From positions 5,579,001 through 5,643,000 of the forward strand of contig NZ_CP109067.1 of the NCBI RefSeq assembly GCF_035917335.1: a stretch of 64,000 nt of DNA, written 5' to 3'. This stretch comes from Micromonospora sp. NBC_01813 (GTDB taxonomy: Bacteria > Actinomycetota > Actinomycetes > Mycobacteriales > Micromonosporaceae). Of this stretch, positions 58,863 to 64,000 are shown one piece after another. The notes beneath the pieces are model-generated. The model had not been told where the DNA came from and ran no database searches. It was given only the letters and a program-made list of their open reading frames with translations. How positions within the stretch are numbered: position 1 is the first letter of the stretch; each line of letters opens with the position of its first letter. The translations under genes and the position numbers were made by a program.

Positions 58863-60203
58863 TCAGGGCCGAGATCTCCAGGCCCGGCCGATGACCGTGC
58901 CGCCGGTCACGAACCGTCCGGCCGGTGACGTCGGGCGCGACACGTGCCCGCCGGCCACCGGAAGCCGTACGGTGAACCGCGCGCCGGCCCCCGGATGGCC
59001 GGTCGCCTCGATGGTGCCGCGATGCGCGGTCACCACCTCCCGGAGCAGTGCCAGGCCGAGGCCGGTGTGCCGGCGGTCCGACCCGGGACCCCGGTGGAAC
59101 CGGTCGAAGATGCGCTCGTCGGGGTCGAATCCTTCGCCGGTGTCGGCGACGGTCAGCTCGACGGTGTCGCCGGCGGTGGAGCGGCGGACGTCGACGTCGA
59201 TCCGGCCGCCCGGCCGAGAGTGACGCAACGCGTTGGTCAGCAACTCGGAGACCACCCGGCGTAGCGCCGACGGGACCCCGGTCACCGGCAGTGGGCCGTC
59301 GGCGGCGGTCAGGGCGATGACGACGCCGTACTCGTCGGCCCGGTCAGCTTCGGCGTCGACCGCGCCCTCGACGACGGCCGCCAGGTCCACCGGGGCGTCG
59401 GACACCCGGTCGGCCGGGGCGGCGGCGAGCCGGGCGGACAGCAGCAGGTCGTCGACGACCTCGCCGAGTTGCCGGGTGGTGCCGACCAGCCGGTCGAGGT
59501 CGGCGGCGTAGCCGGTGGGGAGCGTGCCGTTGCGGGCCCGGCGGGCCAGCAGCTGCGCCCGGGTGTGCACCTGGGCGATCGGCGTCCGCAGTTCGTGGCT
59601 GGCGTCGGCGATGAACCGCCGCTGGCGTACGAGCGCGTCGGCCAGCGGTGCGACGGTCAGCCAGCCGACGACGATTCCGCTGATCAGCGCGGCGATCAGC
59701 CCGATCCCCTCGGTGATGGTCAGGGCCAGGAGCAGTTGCCGGCGGTCGGCGAGTTGGAAGCGGGCGTCGAAGACCGCCTGCACGGTGTCGTCACCCTTGG
59801 GCTGGGTGAGAACATAGTAGACGGTGCCGTTGCGTTCGACGGTGCTGGACTGCGCGACTCCGGTGCTGGCGACGGTCTCCATGGCGGTGTGCAGCGGGAA
59901 TCCGGCGGGGATGGGTGGCGATGGCACGCCGTCGCGCAGGTGTTCGCCGCTGCGCAGGAACATCCAGGTGCAGCCCGGTGGCCCGGCCGGGTCGACCCGG
60001 CTGGCGGCGTAGCGCAGCTCACGGTCGATCTGCTTCTGCTGCCCGTGGAGGAGCATGCCGTACGCGATGCCGCCGACCAGGGTGACCAGCGCGGTGACCG
60101 CGAGGCCGACCAGGACGCCGACCCGCAGCCGGGCCCGCGCGAGGACGGTACGCTCGGCGGCCGCCCAGGAGGTGCCGAACGGTTCCGCCGACGATCGTGA
60201 CAT
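58863..60203 (-). CDS. Membrane sensor histidine kinase
   Basis: 446 residues. Two transmembrane helices (VGVLVGLAVTALVTLVGGIAYGMLL and LLLALTITEGIGLIAALISGIVVGWL) enclose a 120-residue sensor domain. Then HAMP-like, HisKA with IADASHELRTPIAQVHTRAQL, and HATPase with VSELLTNALRHSRPGG, VADTGEGFDPDERIFD and GLGLALLREVV. Its ATG overlaps the response regulator TGA (ATGA). The pair is the last segment of the lldD-like/P450 operon. Confidence 0.92.
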   Translation of the reverse strand: MSRSSAEPFGTSWAAAERTVLARARLRVGVLVGLAVTALVTLVGGIAYGMLLHGQQKQIDRELRYAASRVDPAGPPGCTWMFLRSGEHLRDGVPSPPIPAGFPLHTAMETVASTGVAQSSTVERNGTVYYVLTQPKGDDTVQAVFDARFQLADRRQLLLALTITEGIGLIAALISGIVVGWLTVAPLADALVRQRRFIADASHELRTPIAQVHTRAQLLARRARNGTLPTGYAADLDRLVGTTRQLGEVVDDLLLSARLAAAPADRVSDAPVDLAAVVEGAVDAEADRADEYGVVIALTAADGPLPVTGVPSALRRVVSELLTNALRHSRPGGRIDVDVRRSTAGDTVELTVADTGEGFDPDERIFDRFHRGPGSDRRHTGLGLALLREVVTAHRGTIEATGHPGAGARFTVRLPVAGGHVSRPTSPAGRFVTGGTVIGRAWRSRP

Positions 60204-60886
60204 CAGAGTTCCCCGATCCGGTAGCCGAGGCCGTGCACGGTCCGGATCACCGACCGGCCGAGCTTGCGGCGCAGGTAGTAGACGTACGTGTCGACGATGG
60301 AGGTGGCGTGCGCGTCGTCGAAGACCTGCCGGCGCAGCCCGGACCGGGAATGCACCCGGGTCGGCGCCATGGCGACCACTCGGAGCAGTTCGAACTCCCG
60401 CAGCGACAGCGCGACCCGGGAACCGTCCGGCAGGACGGCGTCACGCAGCCCGAGGTCGAGCCATCCTTCGCCGATCCGTACCGTCTCGGCGGTGTGGACG
60501 CTGCGCCGGCACAGGGCCCGCAGCCGGGCCGCCAACTCGTCCAACTCGAACGGCTTCACCAGGTAGTCGTCGGCCCCCGCGTCCAGGCCGGCTACCCGGT
60601 CGTCGACCGCGCCGAGCGCGGTCAGGATCAGCGCCCGGGCTCCGACCGCACGCGAGCGCAGCCGGGTGAGCAGGCTCAACCCGTCGATCGCCGGCAGCAT
60701 CCGGTCGATGACCATGACGTCGTACGGTCGGGTCAGCCCCAGATGCAGTCCTTGTTGCCCGTCGCGGGCGGTGTCGACCCGGTAGCCTTCGTCGGCGAGC
60801 ATCTCGGTCAGCAGACCGGCGAGCTCGGCGTCGTCCTCGATCAGGAGCAGGCGGTGTGCCGGTGGCGACGCCACGCTTGCCGTCAT
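60203..60886 (-). CDS. OmpR/PhoB-family response regulator
   Basis: 227 residues from ATG 60886. The receiver has LLLIEDDAELAGLL (acidic pocket), the phosphoacceptor Asp in VMVIDRMLPAIDG, and DDYLVKPF with the conserved Lys. The C-terminal winged helix (GSRVALSLREFELLRVVAMAPTRVHSRSGLRRQVFDDAHATSIVDTYVYYLRRKLG) is OmpR type, which binds direct repeats with about an 11-bp period. It lies 46 bp after the P450 stop. The 11-bp-period repeats at 63701-63779 are candidate targets. Confidence 0.93.
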   Translation of the reverse strand: MTASVASPPAHRLLLIEDDAELAGLLTEMLADEGYRVDTARDGQQGLHLGLTRPYDVMVIDRMLPAIDGLSLLTRLRSRAVGARALILTALGAVDDRVAGLDAGADDYLVKPFELDELAARLRALCRRSVHTAETVRIGEGWLDLGLRDAVLPDGSRVALSLREFELLRVVAMAPTRVHSRSGLRRQVFDDAHATSIVDTYVYYLRRKLGRSVIRTVHGLGYRIGEL

Positions 60887-60932
60887 CACCCGCCGAGAAT
60901 CGCACACGAGGTCCGATTTTCATAGGAGTCAA

Positions 60933-62396
60933 TCAATTCCTAGGGACTTCGGTGGACATGGTGGACGGCCCTGCCTGCTCGAAGTGGTCGGCGCACAGCC
61001 GTAGCCGGCGCGCGTGCAGCACCATCACCGTGCCGAGCACCAGTTGGACCAGACTGCGCCCAGCGTCGGCCCACCGGTCCCCGGTGCGCATCAACCACAG
61101 CCGCAGCCGTCCCGGTGCCGCCCCGGCGGTGACCGCGTCCGCGGCTGAGCCTGTGCCTGTGCCTGTGCCAGCGTCCGTCGGCGGACCGGCCGGCACCAGG
61201 TAGCACGGGCCCCGGCTCGGCAGCGACCGGTCGTGGCGCACCGAGGAAACCAGCGCGTACCGGCGCAGCACCTCGCGGGTCACCGCACGCATCATCACCG
61301 GCGCGACGCCGCGCGCCGGACAGGCCCGGTTCGCCGCGATACCGAACGGGATGAAGTGTGCCTCCCGCCGGGACAGCCGCAGCCACCGGTCCGGGTCGAA
61401 GTCGTCGTCGGCCGCCGGCCCGGTGCGCTGAAAGGCGAGATAGTTGAACAGCAGCACCGAGCCGGCCGGCAGCGTGAGGTCGGCGGTCACCTCGATCGGC
61501 GCCGAAGTGATCCGGTGCGCCACCCCGAACAGCGGATGCACCCGCATCGTCTCGTCGATGACCCGGTCCAGCAGCCGGTCGGCGTCGGCCGCCGGCCCGT
61601 CCAGCGCCCGACGGAGCGCGAGCTGCGTCGGCGGATGCTGGGCGATGGCCAGCAGCAGATGCGCCATCGCCTCGGACATCTGCACCACCGCCGTGTTGAA
61701 GAACGCACCCTGCATCCACCAGGCCGACTCCTGCGCGGTGAACGGCTCCGGCAACACGACCGGGGCGGTCCCCGCGTCGATGCGGGCGCGCAGGTAGCGG
61801 GTCAGCTGGTCGCGTCGGTCCATGTGCCGCAACCCGCAGCACTTCAACGCGGTCACCACGTCGTCGGCGTTGGCGACGATCAGCGCCCGCGCCTGCGGTG
61901 GGCACGGCTCGCCGAAGACCATCTCGTAGTAGACCTCGGCCCAGACCGGCTGCATCATGTCCCGCAGCCGCACCAGGCTGACCTGGTCGGCCGGCAACCG
62001 GTCCAACTGTCGGCGGGCGGCCGCCCCGGCCAGCTCCGTCGACCGTTCGTGTGACAGCGCCAGCACCCGCCGGGTGGTCCGGGCCACCGTCCGGTACCGC
62101 TCACCCGGTTCGAGGTGCTCCTGGTGCATGTGCGGCCCCGGTGCCAGCCAGTACCAGAACAGGTCGGACAGCCCGGCGCCCCGGCTGCGACCGTCCGCCG
62201 CCGGGTGCGCGTACACCCGCTCGAAGTGCTCCGCGCCGACCAGCGGGCCGGGCACCGCGATCCCCTCGGTGCCGTTGACCCGCGCGAACACCCACTGGCG
62301 CGCAGCGATCACCGCCGGCGGCAGCCACCGGGGCAGTGTCCACAGCGCGGCCGCCGCCGCAACGGCCACCAGCGCCGGTACGGCGAACCCGGTCAC
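60933..62396 (-). CDS. Cytochrome P450 with unusual heme loop
   Basis: 487 residues from a GTG overlapping the upstream TGA (GTGA). An N-terminal hydrophobic helix (FAVPALVAVAAAAALWTLP) could anchor it to the membrane, unlike most bacterial P450s. ExxR is ETMRVHPL. The heme loop FIPFGIAANRACPARGVAPVMM has the Cys but Ala where the second Gly of the FxxGxRxCxG motif usually lies. The I helix (WWMQGAFFNTAVVQMSEAMAHL) lacks the usual acid-Thr pair. A C-terminal extension of about 80 residues includes a GTGTGTG stretch. It probably oxidises a lipophilic substrate in this locus. Confidence 0.85.
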   Translation of the reverse strand: MTGFAVPALVAVAAAAALWTLPRWLPPAVIAARQWVFARVNGTEGIAVPGPLVGAEHFERVYAHPAADGRSRGAGLSDLFWYWLAPGPHMHQEHLEPGERYRTVARTTRRVLALSHERSTELAGAAARRQLDRLPADQVSLVRLRDMMQPVWAEVYYEMVFGEPCPPQARALIVANADDVVTALKCCGLRHMDRRDQLTRYLRARIDAGTAPVVLPEPFTAQESAWWMQGAFFNTAVVQMSEAMAHLLLAIAQHPPTQLALRRALDGPAADADRLLDRVIDETMRVHPLFGVAHRITSAPIEVTADLTLPAGSVLLFNYLAFQRTGPAADDDFDPDRWLRLSRREAHFIPFGIAANRACPARGVAPVMMRAVTREVLRRYALVSSVRHDRSLPSRGPCYLVPAGPPTDAGTGTGTGSAADAVTAGAAPGRLRLWLMRTGDRWADAGRSLVQLVLGTVMVLHARRLRLCADHFEQAGPSTMSTEVPRN

Positions 62397-63517
62397 CGCC
62401 GTACCGCCGGTCTGATCAGGTCCGGGGTGGCCTCGGCCGGGCGGGCGGCCCCGGCCAGCGTCATCGTTCGCTCCAGGTCGGCCCGCAGCAGCTCCAGCAC
62501 CTGCCGCACGCCGGCCTCGCCGTCGGCGGCCAGACCCCAGAGCACCGGCCGGCCGACGCCGACGGCGACCGCACCCAACGCCAGCGCGGTGAGGATGTCG
62601 GTGCCCCGGCGCACCCCGCCGTCGAGCAGCACCGGAAGGCGGCCGGCGACCGCCTCGACGACGGCGGGCAGCGCGTCGAGGCTGGCCGGTACGCCGTCGA
62701 GCTGGCGACCGCCGTGGTTGGACACCAGGACCGCGTCGACGCCGTGTTCGACGGCCAGCACCGCGTCGGCGGGATGCAGGATGCCCTTGAGTACGACGGG
62801 CAGTCGGGTGGTGCGGCGCAGCCACTCGATCCGCCGCCAGTCCAGGTGTGCGTCCATCGTGATCGGTCGGATCTCGCCGGTGTCCGGGTCGCGCATGTTC
62901 TCGCAGCGCAGCCCGTCCGGCAGGTCGAGGAAACCGTGCCGCAGGTCCCGTTCGCGGCGGCCGAACACCGGCGAGTCGACGGTGACCACCAGAGCGGCGC
63001 AGCCGGCCGCCTCGGCGCGGCGGATCACCGACTCGGTGAACGCCAGGTCCGGCTGTGGGTAGAGCTGGAACCACAGCTTCGGCGGCCGGTCCGGGCCGCC
63101 GGTCGTCAGCGGTGGGGGCGTCGCCGTCGCGGCGGCGGCCGCGATCTCCTCCACCGGCGTGGTGGCGGCCATGCTCACCACCATGATCGTGCCGGCGGCC
63201 GCGGTGGCGCGGGCACAGGCCGCCTCTCCGTCGGGGTGGGCCAGCCGGTGGAACGCGGTCGGGGAGACCAGGACCGGCATCGACACCGTCTCGCCGAACA
63301 GCGTCGTCCGCAGGTCAGGGGTGCCGACGCCGCGCAGCACCCGGGGCAGCACCCGGTAGGAGTCGAAGGCCGCCTCGTTGTCCCGTAGCGTCCGTTCGTC
63401 GCCGGCCCCGCCGGCGAAGAAGTCGTCGTGGACCGGGTCGAGCCGGCGTAGTGCCGCCGCCCGCAGATCGGCCAGGTTCACCGGGGCGGCGGGGGCGGCC
63501 AGCCGGTACCCGTTCAC
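62393..63517 (-). CDS. FMN-dependent alpha-hydroxy-acid oxidase/dehydrogenase
   Basis: 374 residues from a GTG at 63517. TIM barrel of the lactate/glycolate/mandelate oxidase family: MPVLVSPTAFHRLAHPDGEAACARA, VTVDSPVFGRRERDLRHGF, VVLKGILHPADAV (FMN Lys), and VSNHGGRQLDGV with the catalytic His and substrate Arg; LLDGGVRRGTDILTALALGA binds the phosphate. It oxidises a 2-hydroxy acid to a 2-keto acid. The substrate is unknown. It precedes the P450 with a GTGA overlap and is itself overlapped by a possible 54-residue ORF. Confidence 0.88.
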   Translation of the reverse strand: MNGYRLAAPAAPVNLADLRAAALRRLDPVHDDFFAGGAGDERTLRDNEAAFDSYRVLPRVLRGVGTPDLRTTLFGETVSMPVLVSPTAFHRLAHPDGEAACARATAAAGTIMVVSMAATTPVEEIAAAAATATPPPLTTGGPDRPPKLWFQLYPQPDLAFTESVIRRAEAAGCAALVVTVDSPVFGRRERDLRHGFLDLPDGLRCENMRDPDTGEIRPITMDAHLDWRRIEWLRRTTRLPVVLKGILHPADAVLAVEHGVDAVLVSNHGGRQLDGVPASLDALPAVVEAVAGRLPVLLDGGVRRGTDILTALALGAVAVGVGRPVLWGLAADGEAGVRQVLELLRADLERTMTLAGAARPAEATPDLIRPAVRR

Positions 63518-63678
63518 CGGCCACCGGTCCGTGGCGACGAACGGCCACCCTGCACCCGGCCGCGTCTCGCCACAGTCACGTCGATGTGTACTGCGGCAGC
63601 CACGCGCCGTAGGTTGGCCGGGTGCAAGGGGCCGGTCGGGTCGATGGAATCGAACCTGGTGTCCGGATGACGGGTCAC
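63514..63678 (-). CDS. Possible 54-residue leaderless ORF coupled to the hydroxy-acid oxidase
   Basis: The GTG at 63678 falls within 2 nt of the start point predicted from the TACGGT -10 box (63686-63691), and its TGA overlaps the oxidase GTG (GTGA). The product begins VTRHPDTRFDSIDPTGPLHP and has a basic C-terminus (RRGRVQGGRSSPRTGGR). No family recognised. Coding potential is unproven; coupling and placement are the evidence. A longer start at 63696 would lie upstream of the transcript. Confidence 0.4.
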   Translation of the reverse strand: MTRHPDTRFDSIDPTGPLHPANLRRVAAAVHIDVTVARRGRVQGGRSSPRTGGR

Positions 63679-63685
63679 CTCGCTG

Positions 63686-63717
63686 ACCGTATCCACGGAT
63701 TCTCAGAACGCTCTCAG
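63686..63717 (-). promoter_or_regulatory. Leftward promoter with 11-bp-period direct repeats
   Basis: TCTCAG at 63701-63706 and 63712-63717 (read as CTGAGA on the reverse strand) repeat with an 11-bp period. The nearest ends 9 bp before TACGGT (63691-63686), a TAnnnT -10 box. There is no good -35 hexamer, so an activator bound to the repeats is expected to recruit RNA polymerase. Confidence 0.65.
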
Positions 63718-63734
63718 TCCGGCAGCCCACCCCC

Positions 63735-63764
63735 GGGAACGGGTCGACGGCCTGGGAACGGGTC
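63735..63764. repeat. Second direct repeat in the divergent region
   Basis: GGGAACGGGTC occurs at 63735-63745 and 63754-63764, a 19-bp period. It lies between the two sets of 11-bp-period repeats and may be a further protein-binding site. Confidence 0.6.
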
Positions 63765-63795
63765 TGAGGAATCTCTGAGTCCGCGCCGCTAGGGT
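63763..63795 (+). promoter_or_regulatory. Rightward promoter with 11-bp-period direct repeats
   Basis: TCTGAG at 63763-63768 and 63774-63779 repeat with an 11-bp period. TAGGGT (63790-63795) is a TAnnnT -10 box 10 bp downstream, and the predicted start point is exactly the ATG at 63802. The layout mirrors the leftward promoter and matches SARP/OmpR-type activation sites. Confidence 0.65.
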
Positions 63796-63801
63796 CGCCG
63801 C

Positions 63802-64000
63802 ATGGCACCCGACCGTCACCCGCAGGCGATCCTCGACCTGTTGGCCGCAGCCGCTGACCGACCGGTGTTCGAACACGGCGCACGACTCGTCACCGGGGCC
63901 GAACTGCTGGACGCCGTCGGGCGGATCAGCACCGGCCTGCGCGCGGCGGGGATCGGGCCGGGCGACGGGCTGGCGATGTCGCTCGGCGTCACCCCGGAGG
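63802..64000 (+). CDS. AMP-binding (acyl-CoA synthetase/ANL) enzyme, N-terminal part
   Basis: The ATG at 63802 begins a frame still open at the window end (66 residues seen). It reads HPQAILDLLAAAADRPVFEHGARLVTGAELLDAVGRISTGLRAAGIGPGDGLAMSLG, the usual N-terminal domain of ANL-superfamily adenylating enzymes (the GVGPGDRVAL-type strand). It would activate a carboxylic acid to an acyl-adenylate or acyl-CoA. The predicted mRNA is leaderless. It diverges from the oxidase/P450 operon under a matching promoter. The P-loop and A-motifs are beyond the window. Confidence 0.75.
   Translation, partial: MAPDRHPQAILDLLAAAADRPVFEHGARLVTGAELLDAVGRISTGLRAAGIGPGDGLAMSLGVTPE

What the first reader, a model, noticed from the sequence alone, without database searches (positions are those of the whole stretch)
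63686..63802. Mirror-image divergent promoter with paired 11-bp-period repeats
TCTCAG-N5-TCTCAG and TCTGAG-N5-TCTGAG each lie 9-10 bp upstream of a TAnnnT box, one for each direction. Both predicted transcripts start at or within two bases of a start codon. OmpR-type response regulators and SARP activators bind exactly such 11-bp-period repeats next to the -10 box. An OmpR-type regulator is the third gene of the leftward operon, so the locus may be a self-contained switch controlling an oxidase, a P450 and an adenylating enzyme. I know of no described system with this set.
Basis: partly seen in the sequence, partly recalled or inferred. Interest (0 to 1): 0.75.

Follow-up and report, generated by a model that had tools for sequence, protein, structure and literature searches.

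The report
Shared two-way switch for gene cluster
The stretch is a real, conserved on-switch that drives a bacterial enzyme gene cluster in both directions and is most likely worked by the cluster's own sensor-regulator pair; it is a new variant of a known kind of switch.

Summary
TCTSAG-N5-TCTSAG occurs exactly twice in the 7.6 Mb genome, both here. Each pair lies 9 bp from a TANNNT box followed, 6-7 nt on, by a start codon. Of 66 distinct loci with this promoter in view (window included), 65 keep half-site, 9-10 bp and TANNNT on both sides; a scan of other spacings gave none. Fifty share one pair, TCTCAGA-N4-TCTGAGA type, between both promoters; the window's genus has two pairs. The half-site next to each promoter always has G at its centre (130 of 130 sides). 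All 72 of 300 family genomes with the cluster's P450 carry the OmpR-type regulator. Best explanation: the cluster's own two-component system activates two back-to-back, near-leaderless promoters and amplifies itself. The usual cluster also has an aromatic amino acid lyase, two flavoproteins and an antiporter; five of six genomes of the window's genus lack them here and keep a lyase stub, whose GTG is the leftward start codon. No SARP was seen among proteins scanned. Binding and transcript starts are unmeasured, and a paralogous regulator shares the motif. Closest kin: PhoB-type direct repeats, AgrR/CopR-type inverted repeats.

The parts
63701..63718 (-). left pair of half-sites (minus strand: ACTGAGA-N4-TCTGAGA), promoter-proximal half 63701-63707
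63686..63691 (-). -10 box TACGGT, 9 bp from the left pair
   Evidence: in the spacing scan TANNNT appeared only at 9-10 bp
63676..63678 (-). GTG start codon 7 nt after the -10 box, opening the lyase stub (near-leaderless)
63514..63678 (-). 54-codon stub ORF with stop; its first 142 nt are 84% identical to the lyase gene of a congener (G004), and its TGA overlaps the oxidase start
63719..63762 (.). 44-bp spacer between the two pairs (proximal half-site centres 73 bp apart)
63763..63780 (+). right pair of half-sites TCTGAGG-N4-TCTGAGT, promoter-proximal half 63774-63780
63790..63795 (+). -10 box TAGGGT, 9 bp from the right pair
63802..64000 (+). AMP-binding (adenylating) enzyme, 519 aa; runs out of the window (L010 5802-7361)
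   Evidence: NCBIfam ligase hits below cut-off; Pfam AMP-binding in its Micromonospora relative
62393..63517 (-). FMN-dependent alpha-hydroxy acid dehydrogenase, 374 aa, start GTG overlapping the stub's stop (start chosen by the conserved (A/G)TGAACGG)
60933..62396 (-). divergent cytochrome P450 (start inferred by reading)
60203..60907 (-). OmpR/PhoB-type response regulator
58863..60203 (-). sensor histidine kinase, sharing one base with the end of the regulator gene

Best explanation
The region is the bidirectional control point of a conserved gene cluster, activated by the cluster's own OmpR-type response regulator. (1) Shown: on each strand, half-sites TCTSAGA with 11-bp period end 9 bp upstream of a TANNNT box and 21-22 bp upstream of a start codon. 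(2) Inferred: the phosphorylated regulator binds a pair of half-sites over the -35 position (centre near -31 if transcripts start at the start codon) and recruits RNA polymerase to a promoter without its own -35, as PhoB-type class II activators do (recalled). (3) Shown by comparison: the proximal half-site always has G at its centre when read toward its promoter. A distal half-site that is free has the same orientation (direct repeat); one that doubles as the other promoter's proximal half is inverted. (4) Inferred: most of these genomes therefore use one near-symmetric pair as a shared two-way switch, and the window's genus has one pair per promoter. (5) Inferred: as regulator and kinase lie in the leftward operon, the switch is self-amplifying. 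(6) Shown: in five of six cluster-bearing genomes of the window's genus the lyase, both flavoproteins and the antiporter are absent from the locus. Inferred: the leftward transcript now starts on a lyase stub whose stop-start overlap couples it to the oxidase.
For: Two exact sites in the whole genome, both here. At 12 or more of 14 matching positions, 68 placements in 10.1 kb of divergent promoters against 6 in the rest of 1.12 Mb, three of those 6 also at cluster promoters. Spacing, with the best pair per promoter chosen without regard to the box: TANNNT at 9 bp in 60 of 66 on the lyase side and 49 of 66 (2 more at 10 bp) on the other side, 0 at the 13 other spacings from 3 to 17. With the half-site chosen per side together with its box, 130 of 132 sides fit (128 at 9 bp, 2 at 10 bp). 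Proximal centre base G in 130 of 130 sides; free distal halves G in 16 of 16. The regulator is present in 72 of 72 P450-bearing genomes and in 15 of 228 without. In two genomes of one genus, where regulator and kinase lie elsewhere, a pair sits both just upstream of the regulator and upstream of the flavoprotein. The stretch SIVDTYVYYLRRKLG (recognition-helix region, recalled) is identical in 7 and similar in 5 of the 12 clade members aligned, and differs in the 4 distant paralogues. Cellulomonas and Phycicoccus, whose proteins are about 55-69% identical to the window's, keep the shared pair.
Against: No binding or transcript data. Co-occurrence in a co-inherited cluster is not proof that this regulator binds. 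A different OmpR-type regulator (about 40% identical) has CTGAGA-N5-CTGAGA just upstream in the six other genomes of the genus, with another recognition helix in the one aligned, so the motif is not exclusive. Rugosimonospora (L221) has a 12/14 pair but no TANNNT at 9 bp. In the two genomes with the regulator elsewhere, the four pairs lack TANNNT at 9 bp (letters). Three loci have a 79-86% identical regulator without the cluster in view: two show no pair of 12/14 or better and one a single 12/14 match; one of the three (G129) lies at a contig end. The one search count chooses the half-site together with its box and so is less strict. Many of the 66 loci are close relatives, so counts are not independent. 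That each start codon is in frame with its gene was not checked locus by locus.
Confidence: 0.82

Rival explanations
1. The sites are bound by a different OmpR-type regulator of the cell (for instance the paralogue with CTGAGA-N5-CTGAGA at its own gene), and the cluster's regulator has other targets.
For: The paralogue's upstream region carries the same motif in the six other genomes of the genus; 15 of 87 regulator-bearing genomes lack the P450.
Against: The cluster regulator is present in 72 of 72 P450-bearing genomes. Where it has moved away, the motif sits at its own upstream region and at the flavoprotein promoter in two genomes of one genus. No exact match lies at the paralogue in the window's own genome.
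Confidence: 0.08
2. Repression: the regulator covers the -35 region and blocks both promoters rather than activating them.
For: The pair overlaps the -35 position, and OmpR-type regulators can repress from near there (CutR at htrB, PMC12802291, passages read).
Against: The spacing to the -10 box is 9-10 bp in 130 of 132 sides, which an activator that contacts polymerase needs and a repressor does not.
Confidence: 0.06
3. The conserved string is a promoter element of an alternative sigma factor, not a regulator site.
For: Fixed distance to the -10 box and conservation on both strands.
Against: The proximal half is only 9 bp from the -10 box, too close for a -35 element (usual spacing recalled). 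The 11-bp repeat would be unexplained, and the distal half changes orientation between arrangements. No sigma factor was seen among the cluster proteins scanned.
Confidence: 0.03
4. Chance repeats in a GC-rich intergenic region.
For: None found.
Against: Expectation 0.01 in the window; layout kept in 65 of 66 loci.
Confidence: 0.01

Closest known systems
PhoB-type class II activation at pho boxes (recalled, no paper read)
   Same: Tandem half-sites with 11-bp period overlapping the -35 position, a fixed short distance upstream of the -10 box; OmpR/PhoB-family regulator.
   Different: Different half-site (TCTSAGA, itself nearly palindromic); here the pairs serve two back-to-back, near-leaderless promoters, and one pair is shared in 50 of 66 loci.
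AgrR of Cupriavidus metallidurans, with CopR/PcoR (PMC7380067, passages incl. part of the abstract)
   Same: [quoted passage not shown] proposed Type II activator for most promoters studied; targets include divergent operons.
   Different: Different sequence and genes. Here relatives of one cluster differ between a shared inverted pair and separate direct-repeat pairs.
CutR of Streptomyces (PMC12802291, passages)
   Same: Actinobacterial two-component regulator.
   Different: Binds TAWATAAA, not TCTSAGA pairs.

Membership tests
OmpR/PhoB-family response regulator | receiver domain plus Trans_reg_C winged helix | tested here: met
   Pfam PF00072 (1.9e-25) and PF00486 (4.8e-14)
OmpR/PhoB-family response regulator | histidine kinase gene next to it | tested here: met
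   HisKA and HATPase_c in 58863-60203; that it is the partner is inferred
PhoB-type class II promoter | 11-bp-period half-sites at fixed short distance from the -10 box | tested here: met
   130 of 132 sides
PhoB-type class II promoter | regulator binds there and contacts RNA polymerase | not testable with these tools
   needs footprinting and in vitro transcription
AgrR/CopR-type inverted-repeat sites | inverted half-sites separated by 4 bp | tested here: not met
   the window has direct repeats; 50 of 66 loci do have inverted halves 4 bp apart
AgrR/CopR-type inverted-repeat sites | AgrR half-site ATTACA | tested here: not met
   half-site here is TCTSAGA
SARP activator | SARP regulator (OmpR-like domain with a bacterial activation domain, recalled) in the cluster | tested here: not met
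   regulator has a receiver domain; none among the cluster proteins scanned
NCBIfam named regulators (RppA, TctD, PmrA, CseB, MtrA) | score above curated cut-off | tested here: not met
   best 162.8 bits against a cut-off of 250 (RppA); the others also below theirs

The most novel reading that the evidence does not exclude
Because each half-site TCTSAGA is nearly its own mirror image, one regulator pair bound to a single 18-bp site can fire in either direction. The family would then show, within one gene cluster, a series from one shared pair to three and four half-sites, which frees two opposed operons from competing for one switch.
Probability: 0.35. Interest if true: 0.62.

Novelty: new variant of a known kind. 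Interest (0 to 1): 0.5.

Why it matters
Head-to-tail OmpR-type dimers should favour one direction, so how one site drives two opposed promoters is an open mechanical question. This family offers natural 2-, 3- and 4-half-site versions with a near-constant 9-bp promoter spacing. It also points to a widely kept biosynthetic cluster for which my searches found no description, and to a sensor pair that could be used to switch it on.

Tried and rejected
SARP reading: rejected, see membership test. CutR-like site: rejected, CutR binds TAWATAAA. Mycobacterial MprA as a namesake motif: searches gave listings of which I opened nothing, one search found no paper, so no claim is made. Polarity of shared versus split sites: the tree (65 rows; L021 dropped because the regulator is not in view) puts the 50 shared-pair rows on one side of a branch, but the root is uncertain, so which is ancestral stays open. 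Selection on the lyase stub: over the first 46 codons, summed over 10 pairs, substitutions fall evenly over codon positions (58, 63, 58) against 263, 195, 644 in the oxidase, so the stub's protein sequence looks unconstrained (that script stopped with an error after these results). The cluster product was not identified; paper searches returned no paper. In one search the lyase query ('ORFp') was translated out of frame; its rows are superseded, which uses the right frame.

Rows dropped: L047 was dropped as a duplicate of L181 in counts of 66 (spacing scan); and the row list include it (67 rows). Twelve of 79 loci had no divergent promoter in view. Four of these were extended: L249-L251 show the shared pair with 9-bp TANNNT on both sides, and L248 shows a pair with 12-bp period on reading; these four are not in the 66. 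L060 (a Legionellaceae bin) has core genes without the regulator; its one 12/14 match lies inside a gene.

Full report
CHECK OF THE OBSERVATION. The two repeats are present at the stated places. In the window 0.01 matches are expected from shuffles and 2 are found. The whole 7.63 Mb genome holds the same two and no more, and none for the pattern read backwards. All 7 genomes of the genus searched (own included) hold 2-4 matches to the related form CTSAGA-N5-CTSAGA, with 0 for the reversed control in all 7; many of these lie at other genes.

SURROUNDINGS. Leftward: FMN-dependent dehydrogenase, P450, OmpR-type response regulator, histidine kinase. Rightward: a 519-aa AMP-binding enzyme that leaves the window. 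Six of 7 genus genomes carry a regulator ortholog at 89-100% identity (own included); the best match in G005 is 40%, and G005 also has no P450 match.

RELATIVES. A scan with the P450 found 105 loci, of which the best 80 were kept; 16 of these (L047-L062) are strong relatives, in Mangrovihabitans, Micromonospora, Cellulomonas, Phycicoccus, Rugosimonospora and, at 36% identity, a Legionellaceae bin; the other 64 are weak. In the family, 72 of 300 genomes (drawn from a larger group) have the P450 at E of 1e-60 or better. In L049 and most others with enough sequence the cluster is larger than the window's: AMP ligase and, in most, a Pyr_redox_3 flavoprotein one way; aromatic amino acid lyase, a flavoprotein, FMN dehydrogenase, P450, Na/H-exchanger-family antiporter, regulator and kinase the other way. 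In the window's genus G004 keeps the two flavoproteins, the lyase and the antiporter; the other five cluster-bearing genomes lack them at this locus; elsewhere in those genomes they were not sought.

PROMOTER CONSERVATION. 79 loci (1.12 Mb) were examined; 67 rows (66 distinct, window included) have the divergent promoter in view. Pairs matching 12 or more of 14 positions: 68 placements inside 10.1 kb of promoter and 6 outside; of the 6, L216 lies at a rearranged cluster promoter and L222 and L224 upstream of the flavoprotein. With the best pair per promoter, TANNNT occurs at 9 bp in 60 of 66 (lyase side) and 49 of 66 plus 2 at 10 bp (other side), and at no other spacing from 3 to 17; in loci with separate pairs the best pair belongs to only one of the two promoters. 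Choosing the half-site for each side together with its box, 130 of 132 sides fit; ATG or GTG follows the box by 6-8 nt in 129 of these 130. The exception on both sides is Rugosimonospora, L221. Phycicoccus L057 lacks a near start codon on one side.

HALF-SITE LOGIC. Distances between the two proximal halves are 11 bp in 51 rows (50 distinct), 22 in 5, 12 in 2, and 36-87 in 8 (window 73). At 11 bp the two promoters share one pair, so the distal half is necessarily inverted (C in 100 of 100, not independent of the proximal counts). In the 8 loci with four half-sites the distal half is free and is G in 16 of 16, a direct repeat. In the 5 three-half loci the middle half is direct for one promoter and inverted for the other. 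This fits a regulator that prefers tandem half-sites but tolerates an inverted distal half, as TCTSAGA is nearly symmetric. Which arrangement is older is not resolved.

LINK TO THE REGULATOR. All 72 P450-bearing genomes have the regulator at E of 1e-68 or better, against 15 of the other 228. Five genomes with a P450 locus lacking a regulator in view have one elsewhere (60-75% identity); in G105 it lies in that genome's other P450 cluster. In two, G018 and G089, both of one genus, a pair lies just upstream of the regulator and another upstream of the flavoprotein (L229/L222, L230/L224), but none of the four has TANNNT at 9 bp. In G030 the lyase, a flavoprotein and AMP ligase sit beside the regulator, and the divergent gap reads TCTGAGT-9-TACGGT one way and TCTGAGA-9-TAATGT the other (read from the letters; the scan did not flag it). 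Among related regulators of about 57-61% identity, six loci have a distant AMP-binding gene nearby, and three of the six have a TCTAAGA-N4-TCTGAG pair at the end of their kinase gene (L237, L239, L241; not L235, L236, L238; L231 has the pair beside its kinase). A second, 66% identical regulator in G060 is followed by a pair with TAGCCT at 9 bp (L243); a 64% one beside an AMP ligase in G197 (L244) has no pair. The recognition-helix stretch is shared across the 12 clade members aligned and differs in the four distant paralogues. Against: the paralogue of about 40% identity also has CTGAGA-N5-CTGAGA upstream in six genomes, and three loci with a 79-86% identical regulator but no cluster in view have no pair (L232, L234) or one 12/14 match (L233).

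THE LEFTWARD START CODON. In all 5 reduced genomes the first 132-160 nt from the start codon match the start of the G004 lyase gene (82-86% identity), and the dehydrogenase match follows. The stub ORF has 54-65 codons and its TGA overlaps the dehydrogenase start by four bases (ATGA or GTGA) in 5 of 5, taking the conserved (A/G)TGAACGG as that start. Its codon positions change evenly, unlike the dehydrogenase, which shows purifying selection. So promoter and coupling are kept while the stub's protein sequence drifts; a single ancestral deletion is the simplest reading (inference).

MECHANISM AND NOVELTY. If transcripts start at the start codons, the pair spans about -40 to -23, the place of a class II OmpR/PhoB-type activator (PhoB rule recalled). 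AgrR, an OmpR-family regulator, binds a 6-4-6 inverted repeat with in-phase direct repeats and is proposed as a Type II activator (PMC7380067, passages), so both halves of this layout have precedents. Paper searches returned no papers; other searches gave listings from which only PMC12802291 and PMC7380067 were opened, for passages. That is not proof of absence. I file it as a new variant of a known kind.

Noticed in passing
L049 2773-14547 and the other loci: A widely kept cluster (aromatic amino acid lyase, two related flavoproteins, alpha-hydroxy acid dehydrogenase, divergent P450, antiporter, AMP ligase) of unidentified product; the NCBIfam hits shown for the 8 proteins scanned are all below their cut-offs.
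   Followed up: partly
window 63514-63678: A lyase N-terminal stub kept as a short ORF with stop-start overlap to the oxidase in 5 of 5 reduced genomes, although its protein sequence drifts.
   Followed up: yes
L011 3672, L014, L018, L019, L022, L026: Another OmpR-type two-component system of the genus has CTGAGA-N5-CTGAGA upstream; in L011 and L018 it lies opposite a gene that reads like a secreted protein.
   Followed up: partly
L016 3943, L020 5852 and 7409, L024 5714 and 7292: CTCAGA-N5-CTCAGA pairs between a gene that reads like purA and a predicted membrane protein, and (L020, L024) before a flavoprotein-like gene; names by reading only, regulator unknown.
   Followed up: no
L231, L237, L239, L241: A related regulator-kinase pair (about 60% identical) with a TCTAAGA-N4-TCTGAG pair at the end of the kinase gene, in three of them near a distant AMP-binding gene.
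   Followed up: no
L060: A Legionellaceae bin carries antiporter, flavoprotein, FMN dehydrogenase and P450 relatives (37-49% identical) in one row without the regulator.
   Followed up: no
L178, L180, L248: In three of four genomes of one genus the shared pair has 12-bp instead of 11-bp period, with the 9-bp promoter distance kept (L248 by reading); the fourth, L182, has four half-sites.
   Followed up: partly
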